From Halogeometricum pallidum JCM 14848 (GTDB lineage: Archaea > Halobacteriota > Halobacteria > Halobacteriales > Haloferacaceae), in NCBI RefSeq assembly GCF_000337095.1, contig NZ_AOIV01000036.1, forward strand, positions 73,615-113,194: a stretch of DNA of 39,580 bases. Direction: 5' to 3'. This document shows, piece by piece, positions 20,361 through 39,580 of this stretch. The position numbers and the translations under genes were made by a program. The notes below the pieces were generated by a model, which made no database searches, was not told the origin of the DNA, and saw only the letters and a list, made by a program, of their open reading frames with translations. How positions within the stretch are numbered: position 1 is the stretch's first letter; every line of letters begins with the position of its first letter.

Positions 20361-20391
20361 GGCTCTGTTGAAACCTGAGGCTCTGTTGAAA
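20361..20391 (+). repeat. Two tandem IS6-type end remnants
   Basis: GGCTCTGTTGAAA occurs at 20361-20373 and again at 20379-20391 in the same orientation. It matches the 13-bp ends of the element at 27628-29733. No transposase or opposite end is nearby, so these are solo ends left by past insertions. A diverged third copy (GGCCCTGTCGAAATTCTGTC) lies at about 21070-21112. Confidence 0.7.
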
Positions 20392-20509
20392 TCCTATTAC
20401 TCAGACGCCATTCACGCTGAAACATCCGGTATATTGACCGTGCGAATCACTCAAACGGCTCTTTGACTGAACCAGAGATATTTCCCGGTACACCAGTTAT
20501 CTATGGGAC

Positions 20510-22465: not shown

Positions 22466-23707
22466 CTATTCGTTGGAAGCCACTGCGGCCCCCTCAACGG
22501 GGTACCACTGGTGGTCGTCCCACTGGAACCGCACGGGCCGCGCCGTCGGCCTGACCTCGGTGTTCGTCGCCTGTTCGAGCAGCGTCCGCGACGCGGCAAG
22601 GTCGGCGTGCCCCTCGAAGCCACACGGACACCTCAGTGTCTCGCGATGCCGGCGCGTCCGCTCGCGTTCGCCACACTCCGGACACGTCTGGGAGGTCCAC
22701 GCCTCGGAGAGTGAGGCCACCTTGATCCCGTACTCTTCACAGACGTTCGCGAGCTGGTCGAGACACTGCCGATGCGCCCAGAAGGTGCGCGCTTTGAGGT
22801 TTGCCTCGACCGACCAGTACTCACCAAGGACGCCGGTGAGGTCGCCGTGATAGATGGTTTCGACATCGTCGTCGTGGAGTCGCTCGACCAGACCACGAAG
22901 GAGCGCGTTCACGGCGTGATCGCGCCGGCTGGACCGCTTCCGATAGAGCCGCTGGATCCGCTTACTGGTCTGCTGTCCATCCGGTAGCTTCGCTTTGGCG
23001 TCGGCGATGCGCTCGGTCGTCTCACGGAACTGCCGGAACGGCTCCTGGCCGCTGTACCAGTATTGGTCGCCGGCCGTCGTCGTACACGCCACGAGGACGT
23101 TCGCGCCAATATCGAGCGCGGCGGCGTCCGTCCTCGTCGGCGTCGTTTGTTCAGCCTCGGGGACCGTCACCGGTTGGTGGGCCCGATACGTCTCGTCGGC
23201 GTCGTCGTAGGTGAGGTGGAGGCGGCCCTGCTCACCCTGCCAGTGGGGTTCACCGCGGACCGCAACCCGGAGCCGTTCGAACCGACCGAAGCCGTACTCG
23301 TCTTTGAGTTGACTGCCGATGGGAATCTCCAAGCGAGAGCGCTCGCCCCAGCAGATCGTGTAGGCATCGTTGCGGATGTAGGTCCGCAGATCGCGCCCGT
23401 CGGCTTGGTTGCCCCAGTAGCCAGGCGGACTGACCTCCTGGTCGGTTTCTTCACCCGTCTCGAAGAACGACCGCCAGGCGTCGTCGTTGACGCGGGTGAT
23501 CTGCTGGGTCGTCGCCGACCCCAACACGTCGACGTACTCGTCGTAGTAGCCGTCACAGTCCCAGACACTCTCGCCGGCGAAGAACTGTTGCCGACGCTCG
23601 TAGGTGAGCTGATTCCAGAGGCTCGCTGACGCATCGAGGAGGCGTCGGAGGATGGTGTCGGCTTGATCCGATTGGGGAACGACCTCGAAGGTGTTGGTCC
23701 GCCTCAT
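22466..23707 (-). CDS. tnpB: TnpB-family RNA-guided nuclease homologue (IS1341-type), RuvC Glu apparently missing
   Basis: Start set at the ATG at 23707 ([10 protein letters not shown]), overlapping the 58-aa gene's stop as ATGA. The 413-residue product has the TnpB layout: helical N-terminus, Ruv[13 protein letters not shown] (D199), arginine-rich bridge [20 protein letters not shown], zinc finger [10 protein letters not shown] ... LRCPCGFEG (C342, C345, C360, C362) and Ruv[12 protein letters not shown] (D369). At the RuvC-II position, where active TnpBs have an h-h-E-D-L motif, this one has IYHGDL, so Gly288 replaces the Glu. No TnpA is present. It is either an inactive remnant, a haloarchaeal variant using another acid, or a repurposed nuclease-dead homologue. 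Confidence 0.87.
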
Positions 23708-23880
23708 CGGTCGGACGCACCCCACATTCGCGGCACGTAGCCAAGCTGTTCGATGTCGTCCGCGTAGTCCCGAAGAAGCCCGATCAGGACGATTTCCGGA
23801 ACACCGTTCTCGGCCTGTTCGACTAGCCACTCCTCCAGGTCGACTTCGGCCTCTTCGATCTCGTTCAGTTCGACCGCCAT
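23704..23880 (-). CDS. Small acidic protein (58 aa) coupled to TnpB
   Basis: Minus-strand translation from the ATG at 23880 gives [38 protein letters not shown] and [20 protein letters not shown]. Its stop overlaps the TnpB start (ATGA), so the two are translationally coupled. The strongly acidic, helical sequence resembles the small proteins found next to haloarchaeal IS1341-type TnpB genes. Function unknown; possible partner or inhibitor of TnpB. Confidence 0.75.
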
Positions 23881-23883
23881 CGG

Positions 23884-23934
23884 TCATCGCGCCTCCGTCT
23901 GTCGGTAGACCAGTCGCTGTGTGTGGTGTTGCAT
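23884..23934 (-). CDS. Very short ORF (16 aa) at the head of the TnpB operon
   Basis: ATG at 23934 reads [16 protein letters not shown] and stops 3 bp before the 58-aa gene. It lies between hairpin H14 and the 58-aa gene. It may be a leader peptide or a chance ORF; position is the only support. Confidence 0.3.
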
Positions 23935-25564: not shown

Positions 25565-25792
25565 ACTCTCGACGCTCAGTGACACAGCCGACCTCCTGGC
25601 GGACTCAGAAAGGGCGAGGCCGTCTCGGTCACCGGGAGACGCAGTCTCCCGAGCACACGGCGCAAAGCGCCGTGAACGTCCCCCGGCCCCGCAAGCACCG
25701 AAGGCACGAAAAGCGCAGTGGTGGTCGCGGGATGCCGAGCGGCCGAGGGCTTTCATCTGTTATGCCCACGTCGTCGACAGAGTCAGGTCCGT

Positions 25793-25843
25793 GTTGCAAA
25801 ATACCGAAGTGATTTATATATTGGTTCGTTAGTATGCAACAGC
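25793..25843 (+). promoter_or_regulatory. Promoter with flanking inverted repeat for the HTH/NTase operon
   Basis: A strong TATA box GATTTATATATTGG (25811-25824) lies about 25-30 bp before the ATG at 25844. It is bracketed by inverted GTTGCA (25793-25798) and TGCAAC (25835-25840). An operator around the TATA box upstream of an HTH gene suggests autorepression. Confidence 0.6.
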
Positions 25844-26767
25844 ATGCTCACAGAAGGTGAGATTCGCGCCCTTACAGCCCTCCACGGTGAGCAGACGGTC
25901 TCTGAACTCGCAACGAATCTCGATCAGAGTCTTAGCTACACGTCAGAACTTGTCGAGCGGCTCGAAACGGCTGGCCTTGTCGAGACACGTCGACAGGGGA
26001 AAACAAAGCGGATTCGACTGTCGGACGCAAAGGCACTTGAGTTACTCACGGACCTCACCCAGCAGTATTCGCACATCGACTGGCCGGAGCTGTTGTCAGG
26101 GGCAGCCCTCCGTGTGTGCTACTACCTCGACACCCCACGGACCGCGACCGAACTCGCACGCCGCGCCGACGTCCACCGAAGTACCGTCCACCGTGCGCTT
26201 GCCCCGCTTCAGCATCGCGGAATCGTCTACCAAACTGACGACGGCGCGTACGCACTGAATGACGGCTTCGAACAGCTGAGTGCATTCGCTCGTGAGCTTG
26301 CCCATCACGTCCACCGGCAGACTGTCGAAGAACAGACCGACACCTACACGATTCTGTGGGAGTCTCTCGACGAGTTCCTTGTGCAGACGCCGACTGAAGT
26401 CATCGACGAACACTTCACTCCGACAGGCCCAGACCAGTTCCAGCGATACAGCCTCCCGCTGTTGGCACGTGACCGTCGGTACTACCTCTACTCGACGGCG
26501 ACGAGTGAGCCCTCCCCGGAGATGCTGTGCTGCCACATGCTCGTGATCGATTCGGGCGCACGAACGCAGTCATACTGTCTGCTCCTGCTCAGTCACGTCG
26601 ACATCAACCACGACGAACTCCGAGCCCAAGCCACTAAGTACGGCGTCGACGACGTCGTCGACGAGCTCTGCACGTATCTCGACACCAGCGGTGCCCAGCG
26701 GCCGTCGCGACTCCCCAAGTGGGAGGACTTCCAGGAACTGGCTGATGAGTACGAGGTGACGCTATGA
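25844..26767 (+). CDS. Two-HTH MarR/ArsR-like regulator paired with a nucleotidyltransferase
   Basis: Start set at the ATG at 25844 (MLTEGEIRALTALHG), just downstream of a TATA box. The 307-residue product has two winged-helix regions: TVSELATNLDQSLSYTSELVERLETAGLV (about 16-44) and TATELARRADVHRSTVHRALAPLQHRGIV (about 98-126). A C-terminal domain follows (YTILWESLDEFLVQTPTEVI ... RYYLYSTA). It overlaps the nucleotidyltransferase gene by ATGA. By analogy with AbiEi/AbiEii and MNT/HEPN-type pairs it is the likely antitoxin and autoregulator. That role is inferred from organisation, not shown. Confidence 0.75.
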   Translation: MLTEGEIRALTALHGEQTVSELATNLDQSLSYTSELVERLETAGLVETRRQGKTKRIRLSDAKALELLTDLTQQYSHIDWPELLSGAALRVCYYLDTPRTATELARRADVHRSTVHRALAPLQHRGIVYQTDDGAYALNDGFEQLSAFARELAHHVHRQTVEEQTDTYTILWESLDEFLVQTPTEVIDEHFTPTGPDQFQRYSLPLLARDRRYYLYSTATSEPSPEMLCCHMLVIDSGARTQSYCLLLLSHVDINHDELRAQATKYGVDDVVDELCTYLDTSGAQRPSRLPKWEDFQELADEYEVTL

Positions 26768-27576
26768 GGGCGCGATTTGACAGCGCATACATCCGGTCGG
26801 AACTCGAGCGCATCGGCCAGCAGCTGGACAACTCACTCACCGTCTTCTTGATTGGCGGTGGGTCGATGGCGTTTCGCGGACTCAAAGAGACGACCAAAGA
26901 CATCGACCTCATCGTCTCCTCCGGCGACGATCTGAGCCAGTTACAGGCGGTGCTCCTCGAGCTGGAATACGATATCGTCCGGGAACCGGACGAAGAGTAC
27001 GAAGAACTTGGTGCCCAGCGAATCCTCGAGAACGATGATGGGTGTCGAATCGACGTTTTCAACCAACAGGTGATCGGCAAGCTGATTCTGTCTCCAGGTA
27101 TTCGTGAGCGGAGTGAACGCTATCTTGACCCGGGAAATCTCGTAGTCGAACTCGTGAGTCCAGAAGATATCTTTCTGTTCAAAGCGGTCGCCGGTCGGGT
27201 GGACGACATCGAGGATATGTTCTCGTTGATGCAGATCGGTCTCGAGTTCGACGTCGTCGAAGCGGAACTCGAGACGCAGGTCGAACTCTTGGAGCAAGAA
27301 CTGTTCGTGACGTACGTCAACGAAGCGTTGACTGACCTCACCGAACAATACAACGTGACGACGCCGTTGCACGGCCCCGTGGCGGAGATCACCGAACGCG
27401 TCTACGAGGAACTGGAGGTGCTGCACGCGCTTGACGAACCGAAATCGATGGCTGACCTGCAACAGGAGCTCGACTGGTCTGCAGCAGACGTACAGGAGAT
27501 TGTGAGGCGGCTGGAAGAGAAAGACGCCGTCGCGGTGACCGATGGGCGCGTAGAACGTCGCTCAATGACGATCTGA
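26764..27576 (+). CDS. DUF6036-like minimal nucleotidyltransferase (candidate toxin)
   Basis: This 270-residue protein carries the nucleotidyltransferase signature FLIGGGSMAFRG ... KETTKDIDLIV (G31-D47 region), with catalytic D-x-D in KDIDLI and a later third acidic strand CRIDVFNQQV (about 98-107). The middle is helical, and the C-terminus is an HTH-like domain (SMADLQQELDWSAADVQEIVRRLEEKDAV). Family knowledge links such proteins, next to HTH genes, to AbiE-type toxin-antitoxin and abortive-infection systems that modify tRNA or proteins. The ATGA overlap with the regulator supports a two-gene system. Catalytic residues look intact. Confidence 0.8.
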   Translation: MRARFDSAYIRSELERIGQQLDNSLTVFLIGGGSMAFRGLKETTKDIDLIVSSGDDLSQLQAVLLELEYDIVREPDEEYEELGAQRILENDDGCRIDVFNQQVIGKLILSPGIRERSERYLDPGNLVVELVSPEDIFLFKAVAGRVDDIEDMFSLMQIGLEFDVVEAELETQVELLEQELFVTYVNEALTDLTEQYNVTTPLHGPVAEITERVYEELEVLHALDEPKSMADLQQELDWSAADVQEIVRRLEEKDAVAVTDGRVERRSMTI

Positions 27577-27619: not shown

Positions 27620-27627
27620 GTCTACAC
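27620..27627. repeat. Left 8-bp target duplication of the IS6-type element
   Basis: GTCTACAC directly precedes the left end at 27628 and is repeated exactly at 29734-29741. Confidence 0.9.
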
Positions 27628-27771
27628 GGCTCTGTTGAAACCTTCTGACCTTAGCAGAAAGTGGCTGACACATAAAGAGCGTGAGTTCAGCACCGTGATC
27701 GTGTTCTATTCAGGTGAATCTCTCTAAATAATCCGGTAGGATTTCGTTTCCCTTGTACCATCTACAGAAAC

Positions 27772-28449
27772 TCAATCGCTGCCAGCAGCGCTTACACTGT
27801 CAGGCTCCGAAATACGGAGTACCCCCGATACACCGAGTACATCCTCGATGATTTCATACACAATATCGATGTGCTCTCTGTTGGTAAGATCCGAATCTAC
27901 AGCAACGAGAGTAGAGACAGAGTGCTGGCGAGATATCTCGACGGCATCGACGAGTATCTCGCAGTCATGGCCAATGTCGAGGTCCCTCCGGAACCGACGT
28001 AACAATTGGTCGTTGCTCTGCTGGGGGAAACACCGGTCAATCAATTCATCTGGTAACTGAACCTGGTACAGCTCAATATCCTGGAGGCAGCGACGCAGGG
28101 TAGACAACTGCTCTCGTTTATCCATATTGTACCAACTCATCTGGATATCATTCCGGAATTGACTCCGGTCGTTCGGACTGACGTGGATATCCCGGTCACG
28201 CGGCTCGTAGTCGAAAATCTCGTTGTCAGTATCGCGGAGGTAGGCAATCACGTCATCGTAGAGGTTGTACCGGCGTTCACAGAGCGCATCGAACTCGCCG
28301 TTGGCCTTTCCACCGATCACGGTATAGAACGACTCACCATCAATGAGCCGCTGACAGCCGCGATCCTCCTCGAGGTCGCCCGGAAGTTGTGAATAGACGT
28401 AATTCACCATCACCGATGTATCCAGGTTGAGTCGAGAGGCTTCGCTCAT
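27772..28449 (-). CDS. PIN-domain-like protein, cargo of the IS6-type element
   Basis: The 225-residue product starts at the ATG at 28449, overlapping the upstream gene's stop by ATGA. PIN-type features are visible. An N-terminal strand with an acidic residue, RLNLDTSVMVNYVYSQL (Asp10), is followed by a central acidic region and then DIGHDCEILVDAVEISRQ (about 156-173) and STLVAVDSDLTNREHI (about 178-193). The D-x-D after a hydrophobic strand is the usual third metal site. PIN proteins are Mg-dependent ribonucleases, often toxins. The assignment is by pattern and moderate. The partner gene upstream is the likely antitoxin or accessory. Confidence 0.6.
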   Translation of the reverse strand: MSEASRLNLDTSVMVNYVYSQLPGDLEEDRGCQRLIDGESFYTVIGGKANGEFDALCERRYNLYDDVIAYLRDTDNEIFDYEPRDRDIHVSPNDRSQFRNDIQMSWYNMDKREQLSTLRRCLQDIELYQVQLPDELIDRCFPQQSNDQLLRRFRRDLDIGHDCEILVDAVEISRQHSVSTLVAVDSDLTNREHIDIVYEIIEDVLGVSGVLRISEPDSVSAAGSD

Positions 28450-29468
28450 TCAGTCCCCTCCAGAACCTCTCGCGCCATGTCGTGCAGATGTTCCATCTGC
28501 TCTTCGTCAACTCGCTGGGAGTGATGGCCAGCGCGCGGATACAAATCCGCACCACCACATCGCTCACTCAGCCGATTCCGTCGCGACAGTAGGTTTTCGT
28601 GGAAACTCGTAAACCGGTCTGCATGCTCTGCGACCAAGTGGTGTCGGTTCGGGCCCTCTGCGGTTTGCGTAGAAATATACAATGCCGGGTACCGCCAGAC
28701 ATCATAGTAAAAGTACGGCGCGAGATCCTGTAACACAGTTTCTTGCTCGCTCGATATCGACTCGAGGGTCGTGAGTTGCGCAAACACCTGCTCAATCACA
28801 TCTGTTCCTCGAGTGACTAAGTCCACTATCTCGGACAGCTTGTCGATTTCCGCAAGCTCGAGATGGAGGTCAGAGATGAGCAGTCGGAACTCTCGTTCGT
28901 CCGATTCAGACAGCAATCCCTCTTGTGAGCCTCCGCCGAAATCCGACAGCGAATGGTTCGTTGTTTCCTGTTCGATTGTCTCATCAAGGGTTTCGAGGTG
29001 CTCCCGAATGTCCGTCGATGTGAGATACAGATCGGTGTACTCGTCGGGAGCGCATTCCTGGTAGAAGTCGCGGAGGAAGTCGAATTTCCCGGTATACCAA
29101 ACTTTCCGCAGGTCGTAATCGTCGAAGAAAACCTCGGATGCGAAGTAGTCCCGATACTGTTGCACTTCCTCGGTTTCACCGTGATCGCGTCGAACTCCAC
29201 CCGTGTTGGTGGTCATCCGTCCCGGGGCATTGTCGGGTTCGCCGGCAACCTTCGTGTAGGCGCCAGCAAGGTACCAGCTATAGGTGACCGGGAGGTCGAA
29301 CTCCTTAATCGCGAAGTAGCACAGCTTCTCTTGCTCCGTTCGCGTAATGTTTCGACCAGGATCGTCGAACACGTCCTCTACTGCGAGCTCAATACCGCGT
29401 AGAAGCGCGTCTGCATAGGGTTCCTCCTCACGATAGGGGTTGTTCGTGCCTGGTGTGGGAGGAGTCAT
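28446..29468 (-). CDS. Partner protein of the PIN-like gene, cargo of the IS6-type element
   Basis: This 340-residue protein starts at the ATG at 29468. Its N-terminal third (about 45-75) reads RTEQEKLCYFAIKEFDLPVT and YSWYLAGAYTKVAGEP. This recalls the KLLYFA-type segment of DUF4065/Panacea antitoxin domains, although the match is loose. The rest is helical and acidic (FDFLRDFYQECAPDEYTDLY, LHLELAEIDKLSEIVDLV, then SFHENLLSRRNRLSERC), possibly coiled-coil. I cannot name the family. It is coupled to the PIN-like gene by a 4-bp overlap, and both are confined between the transposon ends. That suggests a two-component toxin-antitoxin or defence cassette. Confidence 0.6.
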   Translation of the reverse strand: MTPPTPGTNNPYREEEPYADALLRGIELAVEDVFDDPGRNITRTEQEKLCYFAIKEFDLPVTYSWYLAGAYTKVAGEPDNAPGRMTTNTGGVRRDHGETEEVQQYRDYFASEVFFDDYDLRKVWYTGKFDFLRDFYQECAPDEYTDLYLTSTDIREHLETLDETIEQETTNHSLSDFGGGSQEGLLSESDEREFRLLISDLHLELAEIDKLSEIVDLVTRGTDVIEQVFAQLTTLESISSEQETVLQDLAPYFYYDVWRYPALYISTQTAEGPNRHHLVAEHADRFTSFHENLLSRRNRLSERCGGADLYPRAGHHSQRVDEEQMEHLHDMAREVLEGTE

Positions 29469-29720
29469 GATTAGGATATTCCCGCTATGGTGCCGATAGG
29501 TTTTGTGATACTGCTTCGGCAGTTTGACACCTGCCGGTGAGTGCTGTTCTTACTATCGTATTCAACAGGGATGGTCAAAGATTGTGGCCTCGGACTGAAA
29601 GTGAAGTTCGACAGGTATCTTTTGTCTCTACCGATTTGGCCAGCCACAATCACGATCTTCGTTGTTGACCGATTCGCGCCCTGATTCAGAATGGCCCAAC
29701 AAATTATCCGCGACTGAGTA
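29469..29720. other. Non-coding right arm of the IS6-type element
   Basis: About 250 bp upstream of the cargo operon with no gene. It is more AT-rich than the surroundings and should contain the cargo promoter. An inverted pair GATTGTGGC/GCCACAATC (about 29581 and 29644) is visible. Confidence 0.5.
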
Positions 29721-29733
29721 TTTCAACAGAGCC

Positions 29734-29741
29734 GTCTACAC
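29734..29741. repeat. Right 8-bp target duplication of the IS6-type element
   Basis: GTCTACAC immediately follows the right end and matches 27620-27627. Confidence 0.9.
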
Positions 29742-29767: not shown

Positions 29768-30097
29768 TCAAGACTCACTAGCGAGATGGTCGTCTAGGTC
29801 CCGTGTCCAGTACGTTGCGGGGCCACCGGGACTACATCTCGCACACAGTTGTAGTGGGCCTTCCAGGTGACCGAGTTCGACACGGAACCGTGTGAGGGCT
29901 ACAAGCGCATCGACGACGAGACCACAGCTATCGCAGGCGTAATGGTCACGCTCGTCGGGATCGGGATTCGACTGGATCGCGCAGTCGACGCAGATCGGGT
30001 GTATGACTCGTTCGTCTTTTCCCCAGGTATGTACCTCCCCCACGTCTATACCGGGAACCGCATCGCAGAAGGCACAGCCAGCAAGTGTCTGTTGCAT
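29768..30097 (-). CDS. Zinc-ribbon orphan protein (109 aa)
   Basis: Start set at the ATG at 30097 (MQQTLAGCAFC), sharing one base with the upstream stop (TGATG). The product has three Cys pairs: GCAFCDAVPG, HPICVDCAIQ and YACDSCGLVV, plus LCARCSPGG, consistent with two zinc ribbons. No family is recognised. It is the last gene of a small unit headed by hairpin H15 and inverted repeat C. The IS6-type element landed 27 bp after its stop, leaving the gene intact. Confidence 0.7.
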   Translation of the reverse strand: MQQTLAGCAFCDAVPGIDVGEVHTWGKDERVIHPICVDCAIQSNPDPDERDHYACDSCGLVVDALVALTRFRVELGHLEGPLQLCARCSPGGPATYWTRDLDDHLASES

Positions 30098-30387
30098 CAC
30101 TCTCCTCCCTCGTCGGTGTCGCGAGCGGCGGTCCAGCCTCGATGGAAGACCGCGAGTTGGAGTATCGAGTCGAATGCTTCGTCGCTTGGCTCGTGGACGA
30201 GGACCCGTTCGTCGGGGATGGGAGTGACGACGTCGTCGTCGACGAGGTCATTGACCAGAGAATGGGCTCTCCTCTCGTCAATATCCGCTACCGAGACGCG
30301 GGCGGCATCTTGATCCTGTGCGACGAGTTCCGCTTCAAACTGTTCGTGGTCGGTTGATGCATCGTCGAGTGCGTCTGTACCGGGCAT
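30097..30387 (-). CDS. Acidic orphan protein (96 aa)
   Basis: Start set at the ATG at 30387 (MPGTDALDDAS); an ATG three codons earlier also exists. The product is acidic and helical: FEAELVAQDQDAARVSVADI, DERRAHSLVNDLVDDDVVTP, then VLVHEPSDEAFDSILQLAVF. The middle resembles a small HTH (VSVADIDERRAHSLVNDLVDDDVV), which may bind DNA, but this is weak. It is preceded by hairpin H15 and inverted repeat C, and is coupled to the zinc-ribbon gene downstream. Confidence 0.65.
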   Translation of the reverse strand: MPGTDALDDASTDHEQFEAELVAQDQDAARVSVADIDERRAHSLVNDLVDDDVVTPIPDERVLVHEPSDEAFDSILQLAVFHRGWTAARDTDEGGE

Positions 30388-31535: not shown

Positions 31536-33047
31536 CTAGAATTCTTCTCCCGTAGACCCTGTTCCATCTAGCTGGTCATACATCTCATCCGGGAAGGGAA
31601 GGCTCCCCCAGATCGAGTACGGGCACTGCTCCTGCCCAATGCAGTACCGCTGCATATCGTCGTTGTCACAGTTCATCGGAAGCGGGGGGTCGCCTCCAAT
31701 GGTGTTCGAGAACTCGTAGCGAATCTGGTAATCGGTGACCTGCTCGTCGTACCAGGGCCATCGCGAGAAGACGTCCTTGAGGTCTGTGACAATCGTCTCG
31801 AGGTCACTATTCTGGTACTGGGGAAGCCACATCACCATCCGGGCGAAGTTGTACAGGTCCTTTCGGACTGGTTTCTTCTCCTGGAGGCGCTCGGCCATAT
31901 TCGCCATACAGGGAAGCTCGAACAGGTCTTCGATTGCCTCGACGTCGAGGGGCTGGACGCCACGCGAAGACTCCTGAATCCGATAGTGGTTCGTATTTCT
32001 GTGCTCTCGAATGGTCAGACTCCGGTGGTCCTGCTGGGATGCGAGAAGGTTCCCGAGACTCCGAGGACTCGAGATGCGATTACACACATCTCGCTTCCAG
32101 CCCGCTTCCGGATCGTACGCCTCTACTGCTTCAAACAGTTCTTTCGCCGAGTGGAACTCTCCCAGTGAGACGACCTCGTCTGGAGCGTCTCGAATCGCAT
32201 CCCGGAGTACACGGATGGTCCGTTCTCCGGGGTTCCAATCTCGCCAGATCCGTTCGTGGTGTCCCGTCTCGATGAAGCGGTCGATACGCTCTGTGATGGC
32301 CGACTCATTCGTCGTTAGCCACGTCAGCTGGTCTTCGGAGAGGTTCTCCTCTTGGACCCGCAGGAGCTTCTTGAACGCACGTCTGGCGTACTCACGATAC
32401 TTCGTGTCGAAATCACCGACGGGCACATAGAGGCAGTTGTTCTCGACGCGAGTGAGCAGTTCCCCGGCTTCTCCGGTCTCAGTATCGGCGTGAACGAGGC
32501 ACTTCCTCGATGCTGCGGCCATCGGGATTTCGAGATACAATCCGTCACCGAACTCGGGTATCTCTTTGATCCCCGTACAAACGCGACCGGGGTGTGGTCC
32601 GTCCTCTCCGGGGTCTTTCGCGTACAGAACCTCTGCGATATCCTGTTGGAGACCCCCATCACCGAATTCTCGAAGAAGAGAGGCGAGATTGTTGACGTAG
32701 AGCTCGCGAATATCGTAGAGGACCTGCACCTTTCGCGGTGGGGCGTGTTCGAACTTCGGGTGTGCCTTGACGCAGATAGCACTCAACGTCGCGAGTACGG
32801 CGAGCGTTCCGGGCTCGTCGACGAAGGGTTCCTCTGCGGCGTTGGCCCTGACGTCTTCTTTGAACGCCGCCGTCCCGAATCGCTCGAGATCATTCAACAA
32901 ATCTTCTGGTTGCTCTTCGCCGTCGACAATGTAGCGGTTGTAGCCCCGCGCGAACAGCTGGTTGACGCGGCTCGTGCCGTATTCGAGCGGGAGCGTTGCA
33001 ACGCGATAGGCGGCACGCTCGTCCTCGACAGGCGTCGACTGAGTCAT
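31536..33047 (-). CDS. PriL-like primase large-subunit homologue
   Basis: This 503-residue protein starts at the ATG at 33047, overlapping the PriS-like stop by ATGA. Its last ~120 residues match the Fe-S domain of archaeal/eukaryotic PriL. They read ELPCMANMAERLQEKKPVRK, LYNFARMVMWLPQYQN, DEQVTDYQIRYEFSN, then PLPMNCDNDDMQRYCIGQEQ and CPYSIWG. The four cysteines (LPC, MNC, RYC, EQC) correspond to the 4Fe-4S ligands. The N-terminal 380 residues are not recognisable. With the adjacent PriS-like protein it probably forms an element-encoded primase that starts DNA synthesis on transferred or replicating plasmid DNA. Confidence 0.75.
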   Translation of the reverse strand: MTQSTPVEDERAAYRVATLPLEYGTSRVNQLFARGYNRYIVDGEEQPEDLLNDLERFGTAAFKEDVRANAAEEPFVDEPGTLAVLATLSAICVKAHPKFEHAPPRKVQVLYDIRELYVNNLASLLREFGDGGLQQDIAEVLYAKDPGEDGPHPGRVCTGIKEIPEFGDGLYLEIPMAAASRKCLVHADTETGEAGELLTRVENNCLYVPVGDFDTKYREYARRAFKKLLRVQEENLSEDQLTWLTTNESAITERIDRFIETGHHERIWRDWNPGERTIRVLRDAIRDAPDEVVSLGEFHSAKELFEAVEAYDPEAGWKRDVCNRISSPRSLGNLLASQQDHRSLTIREHRNTNHYRIQESSRGVQPLDVEAIEDLFELPCMANMAERLQEKKPVRKDLYNFARMVMWLPQYQNSDLETIVTDLKDVFSRWPWYDEQVTDYQIRYEFSNTIGGDPPLPMNCDNDDMQRYCIGQEQCPYSIWGSLPFPDEMYDQLDGTGSTGEEF

Positions 33048-33928
33048 TCCTTGACCACCTCCGGTGTCGCAGACCGGACGTCGAAGGTTGGGCTCTCGAT
33101 GGGCGTGACGATACTACAGACGTCAGCGTGCAACGAGTAGGGGAGCCGGGCGACCCGACGCCGATCGGCGGTGACCACCGGGTCGATAGGAATCTCGTAG
33201 GGGTTTTGCAGAAGGTCGTTCAGCACTTCCCGGCTCTTGGCGTCGTACCGATGGGCTGGATCGCTGTCAAGGAGGTAGACGTGAACGCCCTGACCGCTGT
33301 AGACTACCATCGTCTCCTCAGCGTTGAAGTCGTCCTCGAAAATATCTCGCACCTCAAAGCCGTACTCGATGGCCCGTTCGATATCCTCGAAGGCATACGG
33401 GTAGCCTGCCGGGTCTGCTTCGAGAATACCCGCGGAATCGAGCAGTTCATCGCTGTCTTCCGTCGCATCCTCATCCGAGACCGCTTGTGCTGCTCGCTCT
33501 CGGGCTATCGTTTTCGCGTCGATATCGATGAGGAGCACCCACGGTCGTTCCCAGTGATCGAGGGCGTAGTAGACCGCATCAGGACGTGGGTCTGGTTTGT
33601 CGAGCAGATCAGGATCGGCGAGCGCGAAGTCGCTCCGCCCGAGTGGGTCGTTCCGTGCTGGATGGCGGATGAACTCGAAGACGTCGTCGAAGTCGTGGAA
33701 CGCTGTCGTGGTTCGGTCACCTGAGACGTTCGTCTGCCACGTATCTCGACGGATGAAGTCCTTGTCTGGGCCCCCGTCTTTCCGTACCGGATATGGTTCT
33801 CGAAACGCGAGTGCGTACTGTTTCGGCCCCTTCGCGGTGATGAACGACGGGAGTTCGTCGACGTACGAGGGGAATTCCTCCGTGTAGTACCTGTAGATCT
33901 CCTCGCGGGTTGCGTGGCGCCACGTCAT
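33044..33928 (-). CDS. PriS-like archaeo-eukaryotic primase catalytic subunit
   Basis: The 294-residue product starts at the ATG at 33928, overlapping the TraD-like stop by ATGA. Primase motifs are in order: WVLLIDIDAKT (D135, D137 metal pair), VVYSGQGVHVYLLD (SGxGxH at 211-217) and TADRRRVARLPYSLHADV (D255 and the RLP-SLH element at 261-267). These are the catalytic features of AEP-family primases such as PriS. It lacks the zinc knuckle of chromosomal PriS and diverges elsewhere, so it is an element-specific version. The overlap with the PriL-like gene indicates a heterodimer, embedded in the conjugation operon. Confidence 0.83.
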   Translation of the reverse strand: MTWRHATREEIYRYYTEEFPSYVDELPSFITAKGPKQYALAFREPYPVRKDGGPDKDFIRRDTWQTNVSGDRTTTAFHDFDDVFEFIRHPARNDPLGRSDFALADPDLLDKPDPRPDAVYYALDHWERPWVLLIDIDAKTIARERAAQAVSDEDATEDSDELLDSAGILEADPAGYPYAFEDIERAIEYGFEVRDIFEDDFNAEETMVVYSGQGVHVYLLDSDPAHRYDAKSREVLNDLLQNPYEIPIDPVVTADRRRVARLPYSLHADVCSIVTPIESPTFDVRSATPEVVKE

Positions 33929-36900
33929 GTGTTGAACTCCTGATCGAGTTTGTTGAAGCTCCGAATCGTCGTCAACCCAGCTGCATCGAACGATTCAACG
34001 GCCTCTCGAATGTCCGAGAACGAGCGGGCTGCACGCCCGCTCACGCTGCTTTCTATCCGGTCGGCTTCCGCGAGGCGGTCCAACACCTCGACGGCCGTCT
34101 CGCGTCTGTTGAACGCCCAGACAGCGTTCGCGTCCACCGTGCTCTGCTTGTCGTAGTCGTCGACCGGCGCGTGTTTGTTGTTACTCGCGAGTTCGGCTTC
34201 ACCGACCCACACGAGTTCCCCGTCAGCATCGAGACCGACAACGTCGAACACCGTCTCTTCATCGTACTCGTAGTACGGCTCGACCTGTGCGACGTCGTCG
34301 CGGGAGTCTAACCACAGTTCGAGCAGCTTCACACCGACCTTGTGCGGCGTCTTCTCACCGATGTCCCCCTGACCAGGACCGACCTTGAGCTTCTGCCCGA
34401 GGAGTTCACGCCCTGCCGGGAGGACGGTGTAGTACTTCCGACCGCACGCTCGTCCTTCCTCCAGCAGGTCTTGCTCGACGAGCCGTTGCACATCCAAATC
34501 CTCAAAGTCGCTCTTGAACGAACTCATTGAATCCAAGAGTCTGTGATTTGGTGCGTCACCATTCATCACGTCGAGAATGCGGGTTAGGAATCGGACGTCG
34601 TCGTGCGTGAGTCCGCGCCGCTGGAGTTCGTCATCTGGAACGGTTACACCACCTGCCTGTACTGGTGACGACCCATTCTCCTCGACGACAGTCTCCGCTT
34701 CTTCACTGACTGGTTCTTCCGGCTCAATTGCCCCGGAATCTCCAAATAACGAGGTGGTGTCCGCGTTTTTCTCTTTCTTCTCTTCCTCGGCCGCCGAACC
34801 ACTGGTTGCCTGTCCGATGAAAGACGACTGCGTCGAGTCCGTAGGACTAGTTGAGTCTGCGGATGTCGAACCTTCGTCGTTCGGTCTACTTCCCCAGCCC
34901 TTGTCTTCGGCTGTCTCCGATTCGCTGGTAGTCTCTGCAAGCCCATATCGGGCCTGTGTTCGCTCCGAAAGCCGTGGGAGGGCCACGGTCTCGAAGTGGT
35001 CCTCCTGTTCGACAGAGAGCGGCTCGCCGCTCTCTGGATGCCCAGCTGCTATCGGGAGTGGCTTCACTGAGAACGGGGCCGGCCCCGTCTCCCCGAATGA
35101 CGGACTCGGGAGTTGCGCGATCCACTCCCCGCTGGGGAGCGTGTTGATCCGATTCCGAAGGTCGGTCGGGCTCAAGTCTTCGTGGGCCAGCGACTCTGCG
35201 AGGTCGCGCTCGATGGAGATGTTCCCGATGAGCTTCGTCTTGATGTTGTTGAGGACCTCGTCGTAGGCGCGTTCGCTCCGATTTCGGACCTGTCCGGGGA
35301 ACTGCATCACCAGTCCCATGCTCAGGCCGAACGACCGCCCTTGTGGAAGCAACTGCTCGGAAACGAGTTTCGTTGATGCGACGGGGGCTGCCTCCTCGAT
35401 GATGAGGTTGGTAAGGTTCTCGTAGTCCGTGTTCCCGTCACGTCGACGCACCTGCACTGCGTCCCAGAGGTTACTCAACAGGAGGAGTGTGATCGCTCGC
35501 TGTGCCTCCGGACGGAGGTCTCCCAAGTCGAACAGGATCGTGGCGTCTTCGTCGAGGAACTCGCGGAAGTCGAATCGGTTGTCAACGTACTCTCCGGTAT
35601 CGTCCTGCTCCGGAACGTGGCTGAAGATCCGTCGCAGGTGTGCGTCCTCTCTGAGCTTATCGAGGCGGTTCCCGACGGCGTCCATCGACACCTGGAACCG
35701 GTGGTCGTCCTTCGCGAAGTGCCGTGTGAGCGACTCCTCGACGTTCCTGTTGTCTGCCGAAACCGGCGGGACAGTCCGCTCTCGCTGCATCCGGAGGGCT
35801 GCCGCGAAGAGATCGTCTAGGCCGAAGACGTCGTTCCCGTACTCCTCGTCGAAGAGGGCCTTGATGAGGTAACTGAGAATCTCGTTGGCGACGAACGCCT
35901 GTCCGTACTGCTCGCGGCCCATGATCATCCGCAGGATGTCGTGGAAGTGGTCAACCTTGTCCTGGATGGCGTCCTCGCGGTTTCGCCCGGCTTCGAGCGC
36001 GGGCCGGATATCGAAGAAGGAGAACGCGGGGACAGTCTCCGGGACGCGGAACTGGTAGACGTCGTCTAGCCCGTTGAAGCGGTCGTAGTGACAGCGAAGG
36101 TAGTTGGCACACATGCCGTCGCCTTTCGGATCGACGACCACAACGGGGCCGCCGGTCGTCTCACGGAGGGACAGCGCATCGTTGATGATTGCCTTCGATT
36201 TCCCGCCGCCTGTCGATGCGAACCGGCCGTAGTGCGTCGTCAGGAGTTTGGGCGGAATCCGAATCGGGTCCGGTTGGGGGGCTCCGTTCTCATCGAGCGC
36301 ATACCCAATCGCCATCCCCTCCTGAAACTGCTGAATCAGGTCCGGATTGGGCCACGGAAGCGGGTTCCGGCTTTGCTGTTCAGCGCGGGTTCCGCGTGTT
36401 CCTTCTACTGTGAGTTGCTCGGAGGAAGGAACCAAGACGAAGTTCGCGAGTTCCGTCCCACTGAGGACGAAGTCAGGTCGGGTCTTGCCTCGGCCGGTTG
36501 TAATCTCCCGGTCAAGTAGCCGACGGAGGGCAGTCCGGGCGTTCTTCGCCTTCGTCTTTTCTCGAAAGCCGTCAGCACGGAGTCGTTCTCCCTCAACTTC
36601 GTAATAGGGGCCGTCAACCGGGTCGAACACGGGACGAAGTGAGTTCATCTGGGCCGCGAGTTCGTCGTGAGATTCGTCGTCGGTCGGAACACCGATTGCC
36701 CTGATGTTGGTAGTGTACGACCGCTTGGGATTCTTCGCGTCGATGTACTCGATGCGCTTGGCGACTGACTCGCTGAGCTGTTTCTCGTCGTGATCGCTCC
36801 GCTGGTCTTCGACCTCGAGGAAAGAGCCCACGACCTCCTGGAAGAAGGTGTCCCGGCCGTCGACGAGATCCTCTTTTCTGACCTCTGCGTCGGACTGCCA

Positions 36901-37740
36901 GCTCGCCCGTCGCTGGAACACGACCTGAAACGCCACAGGTGAGGCTGCCTCCATCAGGTGGTCCACTAGTGACGCCAGTGTCGCACCGGGCTGGTCTACA
37001 GCTACTGACCCGTCGTCGCCGTCGCCAGGGGCGAAGGGCGTCAACGACGTCATCCAGTCTTTTTTCCGGGTGGCTGAACCGGACCAGCGCACGCCAACTG
37101 GCGAGACGGCGTCGATGGTGGGCCGAGCGAGAATCGTTCCCTCCGCAGTCTCGGTTGGCTTTTCGAGCGTCGTCAGTGGCTTCTCGTCCGGGATTGCGCT
37201 CGGTGGTGCGAGCTTGAGGGCGGTCTCACCGACCTCGACGAAGTGACAAAGGGATGCATCGACCGTGGCACCTCCATCTGCAAACGGGGAGGCTTCAGTC
37301 GCCGCCGCGTGATTTTGATCACGGTCCTCGCTGTCGAGTTCGTACTGCTCGTCGGGGCTGAATTCGTACTGCAGATGCCCTGCTTCGTAGTGTTCGATGA
37401 ACTCGGCTCGTGTGAATTCGACTGGTTGGATGAGCCGAGCGGCCACGTCGACGTCGACACGCTCGATGTCGAACGTCTCGGGGTAGATCGAACGGAGCCG
37501 TTTTTCCAGTGTATCGCGATGTTCGTCGACGCCGTAGAAGAACTCGACAGGGTCGTCCGCTCCCTCACTCAATGCGAGAAACTCGAACTGGGGCGGTGTC
37601 TTACTGTGGAGCGGGTTCAGCTTCTGCGCGAGTCCCGTCGACTCTGTCGTCGCCAGTTTGTGCAGGCTTTCGAGGACTCGAGGGATTCCCTCGGGTTCAA
37701 GCTCCTCGGATGTCGGCGTGACTCGGAGATATTCACGCAT
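33925..37740 (-). CDS. TraD/HerA-like conjugation ATPase with C-terminal nuclease-like domain
   Basis: Start set at the ATG at 37740 (MREYLRVTPTSEE), overlapping the VirB4-like stop by 8 bp. The 1,271-residue protein has a long N-terminal domain, then a HerA/VirD4-class ATPase: Walker A RFASTGGGKSKAI (506-518), VVVVDPKGDGM (533-543) and Walker B NLTNLIIEEAAP. A low-complexity Ser/Glu-rich linker leads to an HTH-like region (RGLTHDDVRFLTRILDVMNG). The C-terminus, VFDVVGLDADGELVWVGEAE followed by DYDKQS, recalls a PD-(D/E)xK nuclease fold. It probably pumps DNA through the conjugation channel; the tail may bind or cut DNA. It could instead be a HerA-type DNA translocase. Confidence 0.83.
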   Translation of the reverse strand: MREYLRVTPTSEELEPEGIPRVLESLHKLATTESTGLAQKLNPLHSKTPPQFEFLALSEGADDPVEFFYGVDEHRDTLEKRLRSIYPETFDIERVDVDVAARLIQPVEFTRAEFIEHYEAGHLQYEFSPDEQYELDSEDRDQNHAAATEASPFADGGATVDASLCHFVEVGETALKLAPPSAIPDEKPLTTLEKPTETAEGTILARPTIDAVSPVGVRWSGSATRKKDWMTSLTPFAPGDGDDGSVAVDQPGATLASLVDHLMEAASPVAFQVVFQRRASWQSDAEVRKEDLVDGRDTFFQEVVGSFLEVEDQRSDHDEKQLSESVAKRIEYIDAKNPKRSYTTNIRAIGVPTDDESHDELAAQMNSLRPVFDPVDGPYYEVEGERLRADGFREKTKAKNARTALRRLLDREITTGRGKTRPDFVLSGTELANFVLVPSSEQLTVEGTRGTRAEQQSRNPLPWPNPDLIQQFQEGMAIGYALDENGAPQPDPIRIPPKLLTTHYGRFASTGGGKSKAIINDALSLRETTGGPVVVVDPKGDGMCANYLRCHYDRFNGLDDVYQFRVPETVPAFSFFDIRPALEAGRNREDAIQDKVDHFHDILRMIMGREQYGQAFVANEILSYLIKALFDEEYGNDVFGLDDLFAAALRMQRERTVPPVSADNRNVEESLTRHFAKDDHRFQVSMDAVGNRLDKLREDAHLRRIFSHVPEQDDTGEYVDNRFDFREFLDEDATILFDLGDLRPEAQRAITLLLLSNLWDAVQVRRRDGNTDYENLTNLIIEEAAPVASTKLVSEQLLPQGRSFGLSMGLVMQFPGQVRNRSERAYDEVLNNIKTKLIGNISIERDLAESLAHEDLSPTDLRNRINTLPSGEWIAQLPSPSFGETGPAPFSVKPLPIAAGHPESGEPLSVEQEDHFETVALPRLSERTQARYGLAETTSESETAEDKGWGSRPNDEGSTSADSTSPTDSTQSSFIGQATSGSAAEEEKKEKNADTTSLFGDSGAIEPEEPVSEEAETVVEENGSSPVQAGGVTVPDDELQRRGLTHDDVRFLTRILDVMNGDAPNHRLLDSMSSFKSDFEDLDVQRLVEQDLLEEGRACGRKYYTVLPAGRELLGQKLKVGPGQGDIGEKTPHKVGVKLLELWLDSRDDVAQVEPYYEYDEETVFDVVGLDADGELVWVGEAELASNNKHAPVDDYDKQSTVDANAVWAFNRRETAVEVLDRLAEADRIESSVSGRAARSFSDIREAVESFDAAGLTTIRSFNKLDQEFNT

Positions 37741-39580
37741 CGTCCTCCCCCTCCATCGCTCCGCCATCGGGTTTCGCAGAGGCGGGTTCGGCTTCTTTCG
37801 ACTGTCCGTTCGTGGCCTGCTGTTCCAGCTCCTCACGGAACTGCTGTACGTCCGTGTCGACTGCTTCCTCGCCAGCACCGGGGAGTGAGGACCGCACCTG
37901 CTCGGTCGGGTCGAAGTCGATGACTTGCTTCTCCTTGGGCATTGCCTCGACCTTGATGCCGCGCCACTCGCCGTCGACGCCGACGAGCGCCTCGGAGAAA
38001 CCTGCGTCCTCGTTCCCGGGGACTGCGTCCTGCACGTAGCGCATCTGGGCGTAATTCAGGCCGAACTCGTCGGCCCACTGGTCGTCCATCCCGTCTAGGC
38101 GATGGAACTGCTTGACCGCACACTGATCGAGGATGGCTTCGGATTCGGCGTGCTCGAAGAACTCGTCGACGGTCTGCGTGACGAGACGAATCGAGAGGTC
38201 GTGGTGGCGGTGATGGCGGAATACTGTCTCGAGGAACGCCAGACTCGCGGCGTCTTGCATGATGTACCGGGCCTCGTCGATGACGAACACGACCTCCTTG
38301 TCCGTCTCTTTCGCCCGCTCGTACACGAGCGAGATGAGCAACTGCATCGTCAGCGCCGTACTGCTGTCGACGCTGCCCTCCTGTTGTGCAAGGTCGAGGT
38401 AGATGACCTTCTCGTCACGGATGTCGAACTCCGAGGGCTTCCCGAGATTAGCGTGGCGACCCTCTTCCTCGAAGGGGCGGAGCTGGTCGAGAAGCCACGT
38501 TGCGTCTTCGCGGATCTTCCCGGCCTCCTCGTCGGACCGAACCACGAACGACTCGGGGTCGTCGACCATGTCCTCGAAGACGTCCATCATGTCTCGGATG
38601 GTCGGGCTGGGGTTGCTGTGCGTCGAGATATCGTCGGTGATGTCGTTGCGCTTGTAGGCGCGCTTGAGGCCGAGTTCGAGCGTCGTCCGGCGGTCACCGA
38701 GTGAGATACCACGCAGTGCGAAGAAGTTCGTCAGGAAGCTCATTGCGTCGTCGAGCTTCTCGTTGAATGGGCTCGCGTCCTCACCCATCGCACGCTGTAC
38801 GTGGTCGGGTGTCTGGCGGATCTCCAGAGGATTCAGACCGAGCGTCCCACCGACGGTGATACGTTTCGCACCGAGTGCTTCGGAGACGCCCGCCCAGTTG
38901 TTGAGCGGTTCGAGGATGATGCCGATGCGGTCCTTGCTCTGTTCGATCGAGCGAATGAAGTTCTGTTTCGAACCGAACGATTTCCCGGAGCCAGTATCAC
39001 CGACGGTGAACATTGCGTACCCGCTGTCACGGGCGAACGGATCGATGACGACGGGACTCTGGTTGTCCTTGTGGATACCGAACTCGACACCGCCTTCCTC
39101 GAGAATCGTCGCGTTATGCGGTGAGGAGAGGAGTGCACCGATAGCACCACCAAGGGCGATAGACTCGCGGCCAAACTTGTTGTCTCCAATCGGGGCAGCC
39201 GACTGGAGCGCGAGGTCCTGCCGGCAAATCGCGGTCTTCGGCGTTAGGTTCGCCGGGTCGTCGCGGAGCGCGCTCTTGACCTTCTGGATGGAGTCTCGGA
39301 GGTCATCTTTGTTGTCGTCACGAACCGTGATGAACATCCCTTGGTCGAAGACGTTCGCACCGCTCTCGACGGCCTTGTAGGTCGCAGCCGCTTCGTTCGC
39401 TCGCTCTTGGAGGTACGCACTGCGGACGCTCTGTTCGAGGTCGGCATCGACTTGGAGATCGTCAGCGATGTCCTGTAGTTCGTTCCGTGCCCGCTGCTGG
39501 TTCTTGGGTGTGATGTGTGCTGTAAGGTCGAACTCAACGTCGGTCAACTCGAAGAGGTCGCTCAGATAGCCGTCGTTCGG
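37733..39580 (-). CDS. VirB4/TraC-like conjugation ATPase, N-terminus cut by window edge
   Basis: The frame stays open past the TTG at 39547 to the right edge (SDLFELTDVEFDL), so the true start is outside. Over 600 residues are visible. They contain Walker A TVGDTGSGKSFGSKQN (about 182-197, counting from 39547), a region VGGTLGLNPLEI typical of VirB4, Walker B KEVVFVIDEARYIM and ETVFRHHRHHDLSIRLVTQT. The C-terminal tail is acidic and low-complexity. VirB4-class ATPases energise type IV secretion and conjugative pili. It heads the visible part of an overlapping operon with TraD-like, PriS-like and PriL-like genes. Confidence 0.88.
   Translation of the reverse strand, partial: PNDGYLSDLFELTDVEFDLTAHITPKNQQRARNELQDIADDLQVDADLEQSVRSAYLQERANEAAATYKAVESGANVFDQGMFITVRDDNKDDLRDSIQKVKSALRDDPANLTPKTAICRQDLALQSAAPIGDNKFGRESIALGGAIGALLSSPHNATILEEGGVEFGIHKDNQSPVVIDPFARDSGYAMFTVGDTGSGKSFGSKQNFIRSIEQSKDRIGIILEPLNNWAGVSEALGAKRITVGGTLGLNPLEIRQTPDHVQRAMGEDASPFNEKLDDAMSFLTNFFALRGISLGDRRTTLELGLKRAYKRNDITDDISTHSNPSPTIRDMMDVFEDMVDDPESFVVRSDEEAGKIREDATWLLDQLRPFEEEGRHANLGKPSEFDIRDEKVIYLDLAQQEGSVDSSTALTMQLLISLVYERAKETDKEVVFVIDEARYIMQDAASLAFLETVFRHHRHHDLSIRLVTQTVDEFFEHAESEAILDQCAVKQFHRLDGMDDQWADEFGLNYAQMRYVQDAVPGNEDAGFSEALVGVDGEWRGIKVEAMPKEKQVIDFDPTEQVRSSLPGAGEEAVDTDVQQFREELEQQATNGQSKEAEPASAKPDGGAMEGEDDA

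What the first reader, a model, noticed from the sequence alone, without database searches (positions are those of the whole stretch)
27620..29741. Intact non-autonomous IS6-type transposon carrying a two-gene cassette
13-bp inverted ends GGCTCTGTTGAAA and a perfect 8-bp duplication GTCTACAC bound 2.1 kb with no transposase. Inside are two ATGA-overlapping genes, one PIN-like. Most transposase-less elements are short and empty; one that moves a likely toxin-antitoxin or defence pair as a single unit is unusual. It inserted between the HTH/NTase pair and another accessory operon.
Basis: seen in the sequence. Interest (0 to 1): 0.78.

Follow-up and report, generated by a model that had tools for sequence, protein, structure and literature searches.

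The report
Gene-swapping transposon shell in salt-loving archaea
The spotted 2.1-kb segment is a real mobile element without its own transposase that carries a likely toxin-type gene pair; it belongs to a widespread haloarchaeal family with IS5-type (not IS6) ends, and in this family unrelated genes replace each other between fixed element ends at the same genome site, including this one.

Summary
In detail: 13/13-bp inverted ends, a perfect 8-bp duplication, 2,106 bp, no transposase, and two ATGA-overlapping genes, one PIN-like. The IS6 label is not supported. Haloarchaeal IS6 elements examined end in other sequences. Elements encoding an IS5-family transposase end exactly in GGCTCTGTTGAAATCC with 8-bp duplications and occur in 105 of 170 family genomes, though none was found in this assembly. 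The element is therefore an IS5-type mobile insertion cassette, presumably moved in trans. It is not a singleton. Similar ends (~68 bp, types A and B) match in 74 of 170 genomes and flank unrelated cargo: cystathionine gamma-synthase, ParE-like, nucleotidyltransferase, hydrolase and regulator genes. The PIN pair occurs with complete or partial A ends at several other sites. Most striking, cargo is exchanged in place. At the window's own site, other haloarchaea carry the same orthologous ends with different genes. At two other sites, flanks 93-98% identical run 62-70 bp into both ends and stop, with unrelated interiors; three more sites show this on one side. This resembles IS231-MIC231 modularity and may explain part of the unexplained 'deletion-coupled insertions' of haloarchaea. 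Transposition, swap mechanism and toxin-antitoxin function are inferred, not tested.

The parts
27620..27627 (.). left target-site duplication GTCTACAC
   Evidence: same sequence at the same place in G015, G043 and G080
27628..27640 (+). left terminal inverted repeat GGCTCTGTTGAAA
27628..27695 (+). B-type element end (~68 bp), conserved in elements with unrelated cargo
   Evidence: profile built without the window, E=2.2e-10
27772..28449 (-). cargo gene 2: PIN-domain (VapC-like) putative RNase, 225 aa
28446..29468 (-). cargo gene 1: 340-aa partner, mostly helical, no Pfam/NCBIfam/PADLOC family; putative antitoxin or sensor
29664..29733 (-). A-type element end (~68 bp)
   Evidence: profile E=1.7e-15; A-end matches in 74 of 170 family genomes
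29721..29733 (-). right terminal inverted repeat
29734..29741 (.). right target-site duplication GTCTACAC
   Evidence: also next to A ends in G082 and G102
25718..26767 (+). left flank: HTH protein (HVO_2833_C), not part of the element
26764..27576 (+). left flank: DUF6036 nucleotidyltransferase, not part of the element
29768..30100 (-). right flank: DUF7558 gene, not part of the element
20379..20440 (+). solitary end GGCTCTGTTGAAATCCTATTACTCAGACGCC... resembling the right end of the autonomous IS5 elements (remnant)

Best explanation
The 27628-29733 segment is a mobile insertion cassette: a transposase-less element with IS5-family terminal repeats, presumably moved in trans by an IS5-type transposase like those in related genomes. 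Shown by sequence: intact ends and duplication; IS5-family autonomous elements with the same TIR and the same duplication length; many sister elements with conserved A and B ends and unrelated genes; the same PIN pair with A-type ends at several sites; and unrelated interiors between orthologous ends at the same site in related genomes. Inferred: (1) trans mobilisation; (2) that cargo is swapped by recombination within the conserved ~60-70-bp ends of two elements, leaving the TIRs and duplication of the resident copy; (3) that the cargo here works as a toxin-antitoxin or abortive-defence pair, a PIN ribonuclease held by the 340-aa partner encoded just upstream with overlapping start and stop.
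For: Ends. IS5 partner: TIR GGCTCTGTTGAAATCCTCAG 76 bp before a PF01609 transposase, with perfect 8-bp duplications at ten elements of 1.18-2.34 kb with variable downstream genes; NCBIfam IS5 family 220 bits, cut-off 140; transposase in 105 of 170 genomes, including an intact copy in the same genus (G039, duplication CCGTCGTG). Two transposase-bearing elements have right ends resembling the A/B type (L174; L293), and L293's passenger gene resembles the cargo of the transposase-less L109 (71%). Sister elements of 124 bp-2.8 kb with duplications and diverse cargo, including one in this genome carrying cystathionine gamma-synthase. Same PIN pair elsewhere: Natrarchaeobaculum plasmid with both ends at another site, Haloplanus/Halobacterium noricense plasmids behind a decayed A end, remnants in G089 and G167. 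Cargo exchange: G037/G031 and G031/G023/G036 on both sides, three more sites on the A side; window site in G015, G043, G080, G102 and G082, where B ends are more alike (88%) than B ends of other sites (78%) and diverge about 55-65 bp in. Gene pair conserved as an operon in most homologues.
Against: No matching transposase was found in this assembly (best relative 36%), so current mobility here is unproven. Autonomous and A/B-ended elements share mainly the terminal ~20 bp; A/B-type right ends on transposase-bearing elements were recognised by eye in two cases, and one of those transposases contains a stop codon while the other has an imperfect duplication. Same-site elements could be repeated insertions at a preferred target, though orientation and B-end similarity argue against this. 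At three of the swap sites only the A side was resolved, and at the window site several relatives show one intact end only. The 340-aa partner has no recognised fold, and no toxicity data exist.
Confidence: 0.78

Rival explanations
1. An IS6-family derivative, moved by an IS6 transposase.
For: GGCTCTGTTGAAA resembles the general IS6 end (GG tip, cTGTt, caaa motifs; PMC7986276), and 8 bp is also the IS6 duplication length; IS6 elements exist in this genome.
Against: All resolved haloarchaeal IS6 ends are GGCACTGTCTAG... / GGCACTGCTAGATTG... / GGCGGTGTTTAG-like; IS5-family elements carry the exact end.
Confidence: 0.04
2. Independent insertions at a hot spot rather than cargo exchange: different cargo elements hit the same 8 bp repeatedly.
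For: IS5-type elements can prefer targets; a paralogous site without the element exists (L253).
Against: Same orientation every time, B ends at this site share diagnostic positions (88% against 78% for other sites), G037/G031 share even the same imperfect duplication GATTTTCC/GATTTCCC, and some pairs keep the same cargo (G023/G036).
Confidence: 0.15
3. The cassette genes were fixed in the plasmid backbone and the ends are fortuitous or inserted separately on both sides.
For: The same gene pair is found without intact ends in G076, G089 and G167 and at another place of a similar plasmid backbone.
Against: A perfect duplication directly at the tips, flanks without the element at a paralogous site, profile matches of both ends, and other-site copies that retain A and B ends or their inner parts.
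Confidence: 0.04
4. The cargo is not a toxin-antitoxin pair but a housekeeping or regulatory pair (PIN RNase acting with a partner in RNA processing or plasmid maintenance).
For: The 340-aa partner is unlike known VapB antitoxins and lacks a recognised DNA-binding domain; no PADLOC, Pfam or NCBIfam family.
Against: Patchy distribution (25 of 170 genomes), occurrence on plasmids and mobile elements, overlapping two-gene operon and VapC-like fold.
Confidence: 0.35

Closest known systems
Mobile insertion cassettes (MIC231 with IS231, Bacillus cereus; mic elements with qnrD/qnrS2)
   Same: Terminal inverted repeats of an IS, target duplication, passenger gene instead of transposase, described as mobilised in trans and modular (PMC3913671; PMC2266710; title of De Palmenaer 2004)
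   Different: IS5-family instead of IS4-family ends, archaeal hosts, conserved ~68-bp A/B ends, a wide cargo range, and in-place cargo replacement visible at several sites
IS5 family insertion sequences (transposase-bearing elements in the same genomes)
   Same: Same TIR GGCTCTGTTGAAATCC and 8-bp duplication
   Different: The window element has no transposase; inner ends differ from most autonomous copies
Haloarchaeal MITEs (e.g. in Haloquadratum walsbyi, PMC3119063)
   Same: Transposase-less, share only terminal repeats with the element that supplies the transposase
   Different: Described as short and almost all non-coding; here 2.1 kb with two genes
Deletion-coupled insertions in Haloquadratum walsbyi (PMC3119063)
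   Same: Unrelated sequences at identical positions in otherwise syntenic genomes
   Different: There no conserved boundary sequence was reported; here the boundaries are recognisable element ends
VapBC toxin-antitoxin systems
   Same: PIN-domain protein in a two-gene overlapping operon; VapC structures are the best fold matches
   Different: 340-aa helical partner without a recognised VapB-type domain

Membership tests
Mobile insertion cassette (MIC) | terminal inverted repeats matching those of a transposase-bearing IS | tested here: met
   IS5-family elements with the same TIR
Mobile insertion cassette (MIC) | passenger gene(s) and no transposase between the repeats | tested here: met
Mobile insertion cassette (MIC) | target-site duplication | tested here: met
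   perfect 8 bp
Mobile insertion cassette (MIC) | transposition in trans by the IS transposase | not testable with these tools
   needs an assay; no such transposase found in this assembly
IS6 family | ends shared with IS6 elements of the host group | tested here: not met
   IS6 ends GGCACTGTCTAG..., GGCACTGCTAGATTG..., GGCGGTGTTTAG-like
IS6 family | IS6 (DDE_Tnp_IS240) transposase in elements with these ends | tested here: not met
   transposases found between these ends are PF01609/IS5
IS5 family | IS5 transposase in elements with the same ends and duplication length | tested here: met
   NCBIfam NF033579 220.5 bits, cut-off 140; ends
IS5 family | own transposase gene (autonomous member) | tested here: not met
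   no transposase in 27628-29733
IS5 family, ISH1 group | group assignment by ISfinder criteria | not tested
   ISfinder not available; the 8-bp duplication fits from memory only
MITE | short, non-coding element | tested here: not met
   2,106 bp with two genes; short non-coding relatives of 124-125 bp exist
VapBC toxin-antitoxin | PIN-domain ribonuclease toxin | tested here: inconclusive
   acidic residues conserved, VapC best fold match with probability 1.00 but E 0.04, Pfam PIN only in some relatives at weak E-values
VapBC toxin-antitoxin | VapB-type antitoxin partner | tested here: inconclusive
   340-aa helical partner, no VapB or other known family at sequence level, no clear fold match
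VapBC toxin-antitoxin | toxicity neutralised by the partner | not testable with these tools
   needs expression experiments

The most novel reading that the evidence does not exclude
The inner part of each end is a dedicated recombination site: in the sister element of this genome, positions 38-66 form the palindrome GTGCTGAATA-N9-TATTCAGCAC, and the swap boundaries fall at about 55-71 bp. The family would then be a two-tier system, with IS5 ends for transposition and an inner site for targeted cassette exchange: an archaeal cassette-exchange system unrelated to integrons.
Probability: 0.12. Interest if true: 0.85.

Novelty: new variant of a known kind. Interest (0 to 1): 0.6.

Why it matters
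Haloarchaea are known for carrying unrelated sequences at identical genome positions, and the mechanism of such 'deletion-coupled insertions' was reported as not understood (PMC3119063). A family of transposon shells with constant ends and interchangeable contents gives one concrete, testable route for part of it, and a way by which toxin-like, regulatory and metabolic genes circulate among plasmids and chromosomes without carrying a transposase. It also gives natural boundaries for finding new cargo, including uncharacterised PIN-domain gene pairs.

Tried and rejected
IS6 origin: rejected on end sequences. Family searches (Pfam, PADLOC, NCBIfam) for the 340-aa partner gave nothing usable; Foldseek and VIA-align gave only generic helical-bundle matches (7yk3 DarTG at Z 5.7 is not above the noise level). 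The HMG_box_5 hit of the PIN protein is below its cut-off and was ignored. An A-ended locus with an IS5 transposase inside (L192) looked like an autonomous A/B element but has no second end on its contig. No copy in phage records. Literature searches for the end sequence and for haloarchaeal cargo elements found no prior description, but only open-access papers are held.

Full report
Observation. The window holds GTCTACAC-GGCTCTGTTGAAA at 27620-27640 and TTTCAACAGAGCC-GTCTACAC at 29721-29741, 2,106 bp from tip to tip, with no transposase ORF between them. The repeat is far above chance (9 copies against 0 for the reversed control in the whole genome). Two genes on the minus strand overlap by ATGA. 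Left neighbours are an HTH protein and a DUF6036 nucleotidyltransferase; the right neighbour is DUF7558.

Which transposon family. The genome's IS6-type elements end in GGCACTGTCTAGATAA, and the other resolved haloarchaeal IS6 elements end in GGCACTGTCTAG, GGCACTGCTAGATTG or GGCGGTGTTTAG-type repeats. In contrast, a search for loci with these ends led to a 935-bp element with TIR TGCTCTGTTGAATCCG and an IS5-type transposase, and from there to a group whose left end is GGCTCTGTTGAAATCCTCAG, 76 bp before the transposase match, with perfect 8-bp duplications in ten elements. NCBIfam calls the transposase IS5 family well over its cut-off. It occurs in 105 of 170 genomes of the family, including an intact element in the same genus, but not in this assembly, where multi-copy elements may have been lost in a 45-contig draft. 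In the window itself a solitary end at 20379 resembles the right end of these elements. IS6 is therefore rejected and IS5 preferred.

The element is one of a large family. The right end of the window element (type A, ~68 bp) finds matches in 74 of 170 genomes. Resolved transposase-less elements with duplications range from 124 bp to 2.8 kb. Their cargo includes a cystathionine gamma-synthase with a monooxygenase-like gene (in this same genome, C6:17249-19290), a ParE-like toxin, a nucleotidyltransferase next to a small helical protein, HTH/FilR1 regulators, a cupin, alpha/beta hydrolases, a metallo-beta-lactamase-fold hydrolase and membrane proteins (the alpha/beta hydrolase and membrane labels are by eye). 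Profiles built from these sister elements, without the window, recognise the window's right end as A (E=1.7e-15) and left end as B (E=2.2e-10). Transposase-bearing elements also carry variable passenger genes next to the transposase; two of them have A/B-like right ends (L174, L293), and the passenger of L293 resembles the cargo of the transposase-less L109. This links the two kinds.

Mobility of this cargo. Close relatives of the gene pair (80-94%) exist in other genomes. On a Halobacterium sp. DL1 plasmid the complete element sits at the same site (93.6%). On Haloplanus sp. GX21 and H. noricense plasmids the pair lies at a different place of a similar backbone behind a complete but decayed A end. 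On the Natrarchaeobaculum plasmid pAArc1-01 an A end and a B end both flank it at another site, the B end being split by another transposon. G089 and G167 keep inner parts of the ends. So the unit has occupied several sites.

Cargo exchange. Two sites can be compared on both sides. G037 and G031 share flanks at 94% over 4.1 kb and 97% over 1.9 kb; identity continues 62 bp into A and 65 bp into B, and the interiors (770- and 969-bp elements) are unrelated, while even the imperfect duplication GATTTTCC/GATTTCCC is the same. G031 and G023/G036 share the ACTGAAAT insertion with 70 and 64 bp of the ends, but carry 1,541- and 467-bp elements. Three further sites show the same stop at 59-71 bp on the A side, one more at 111 bp, and two pairs with retained cargo serve as controls. 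At the window's own site, a query made of the joined flanks finds a paralogous place without the element in G043 and, in G015, G043 (second copy), G080 and G102, flank homology that stops at the duplication followed by a B end in the same orientation; G082 and G102 show the A end and the duplication on the other side. The contents differ: a SAM methyltransferase in G043 and G039, an HTH fragment in G080, other genes in G015, G082 and G102 (10.6 kb between the ends in the last). B ends at this site average 88% identity to each other and 78% to B ends elsewhere. G015 and G043 are identical across the last 60 bp of flank and the first ~56 bp of B, then unrelated. The simplest reading is one old insertion whose contents were replaced several times.

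How it probably works. Shown: structure, relatives, and replacement patterns. Inferred: an IS5-type transposase supplied in trans moves anything between two such tips; because all copies share ~60-70 bp of end sequence, two copies in one cell can recombine through both ends and exchange contents without a new insertion. In the sister element of this genome the inner part of the B end contains a palindrome (GTGCTGAATA-N9-TATTCAGCAC, element positions 38-66); whether it is a protein-binding or recombination site is open.

The gene pair. The 225-aa protein has the four acidic positions of PIN nucleases, a confident model and VapC toxins as best fold matches, but with a weak E-value. The 340-aa partner is a helical family without recognised relatives, with conserved K48, W65 and G69. 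Most homologues are followed directly by the PIN gene. A toxin-antitoxin or defence role is the most likely reading (about 0.6) but untested.

Comparison with known systems. The closest known kind is the mobile insertion cassette, first described with IS231 in Bacillus cereus and called modular. The present elements meet its structural criteria with IS5 ends in archaea; trans mobilisation was not testable. Haloarchaeal MITEs have been reported as almost all short and non-coding. The unexplained deletion-coupled insertions in Haloquadratum look alike at the level of outcome; whether they have such ends was not checked here. I rate this a new variant of a known kind. No earlier description was found, but the library holds open-access papers only.

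Noticed in passing
window 20361-20391: Two GGCTCTGTTGAAA copies 18 bp apart in the same orientation; the second resembles the right end of the autonomous IS5 elements. No partner end with up to 2 mismatches within the window: remnant or nested insertion.
   Followed up: partly
L047 1250-3291 (G000 contig C6): Second intact element of the same family in this genome, 2,042 bp, duplication GTTCGTTC/GTTCGCTC, carrying a cystathionine gamma-synthase and a monooxygenase-like gene: metabolic cargo.
   Followed up: partly
L049 3368-3492 (G000 contig C23): 125-bp non-coding element with the same ends and a perfect 8-bp duplication AAGGAGAG: a MITE of the same family.
   Followed up: no
L199 (G037), 2,821-bp element: Element whose cargo is an HTH-nucleotidyltransferase and a small helical protein, reminiscent of MNT/HEPN toxin-antitoxin pairs; L180 carries a ParE-like toxin. 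Toxin-type genes recur as cargo.
   Followed up: no
L141, L158, L163, L169, L171, L175, L178, L179: Transposase-bearing IS5 elements each carry a different small gene, often a predicted membrane protein by eye, between the transposase and the right end.
   Followed up: no
window 22466-23887 (-): 473-aa ORF whose C-terminus looks like a TnpB/OrfB zinc finger ([13 protein letters not shown]...CPCG); not searched.
   Followed up: no
window 31536-37878: Primase-associated protein (NF038197, E 5e-256), primase-like and large HerA-like ATPase genes, also next to relatives of the cassette on several haloarchaeal plasmids: a shared plasmid-type backbone.
   Followed up: partly
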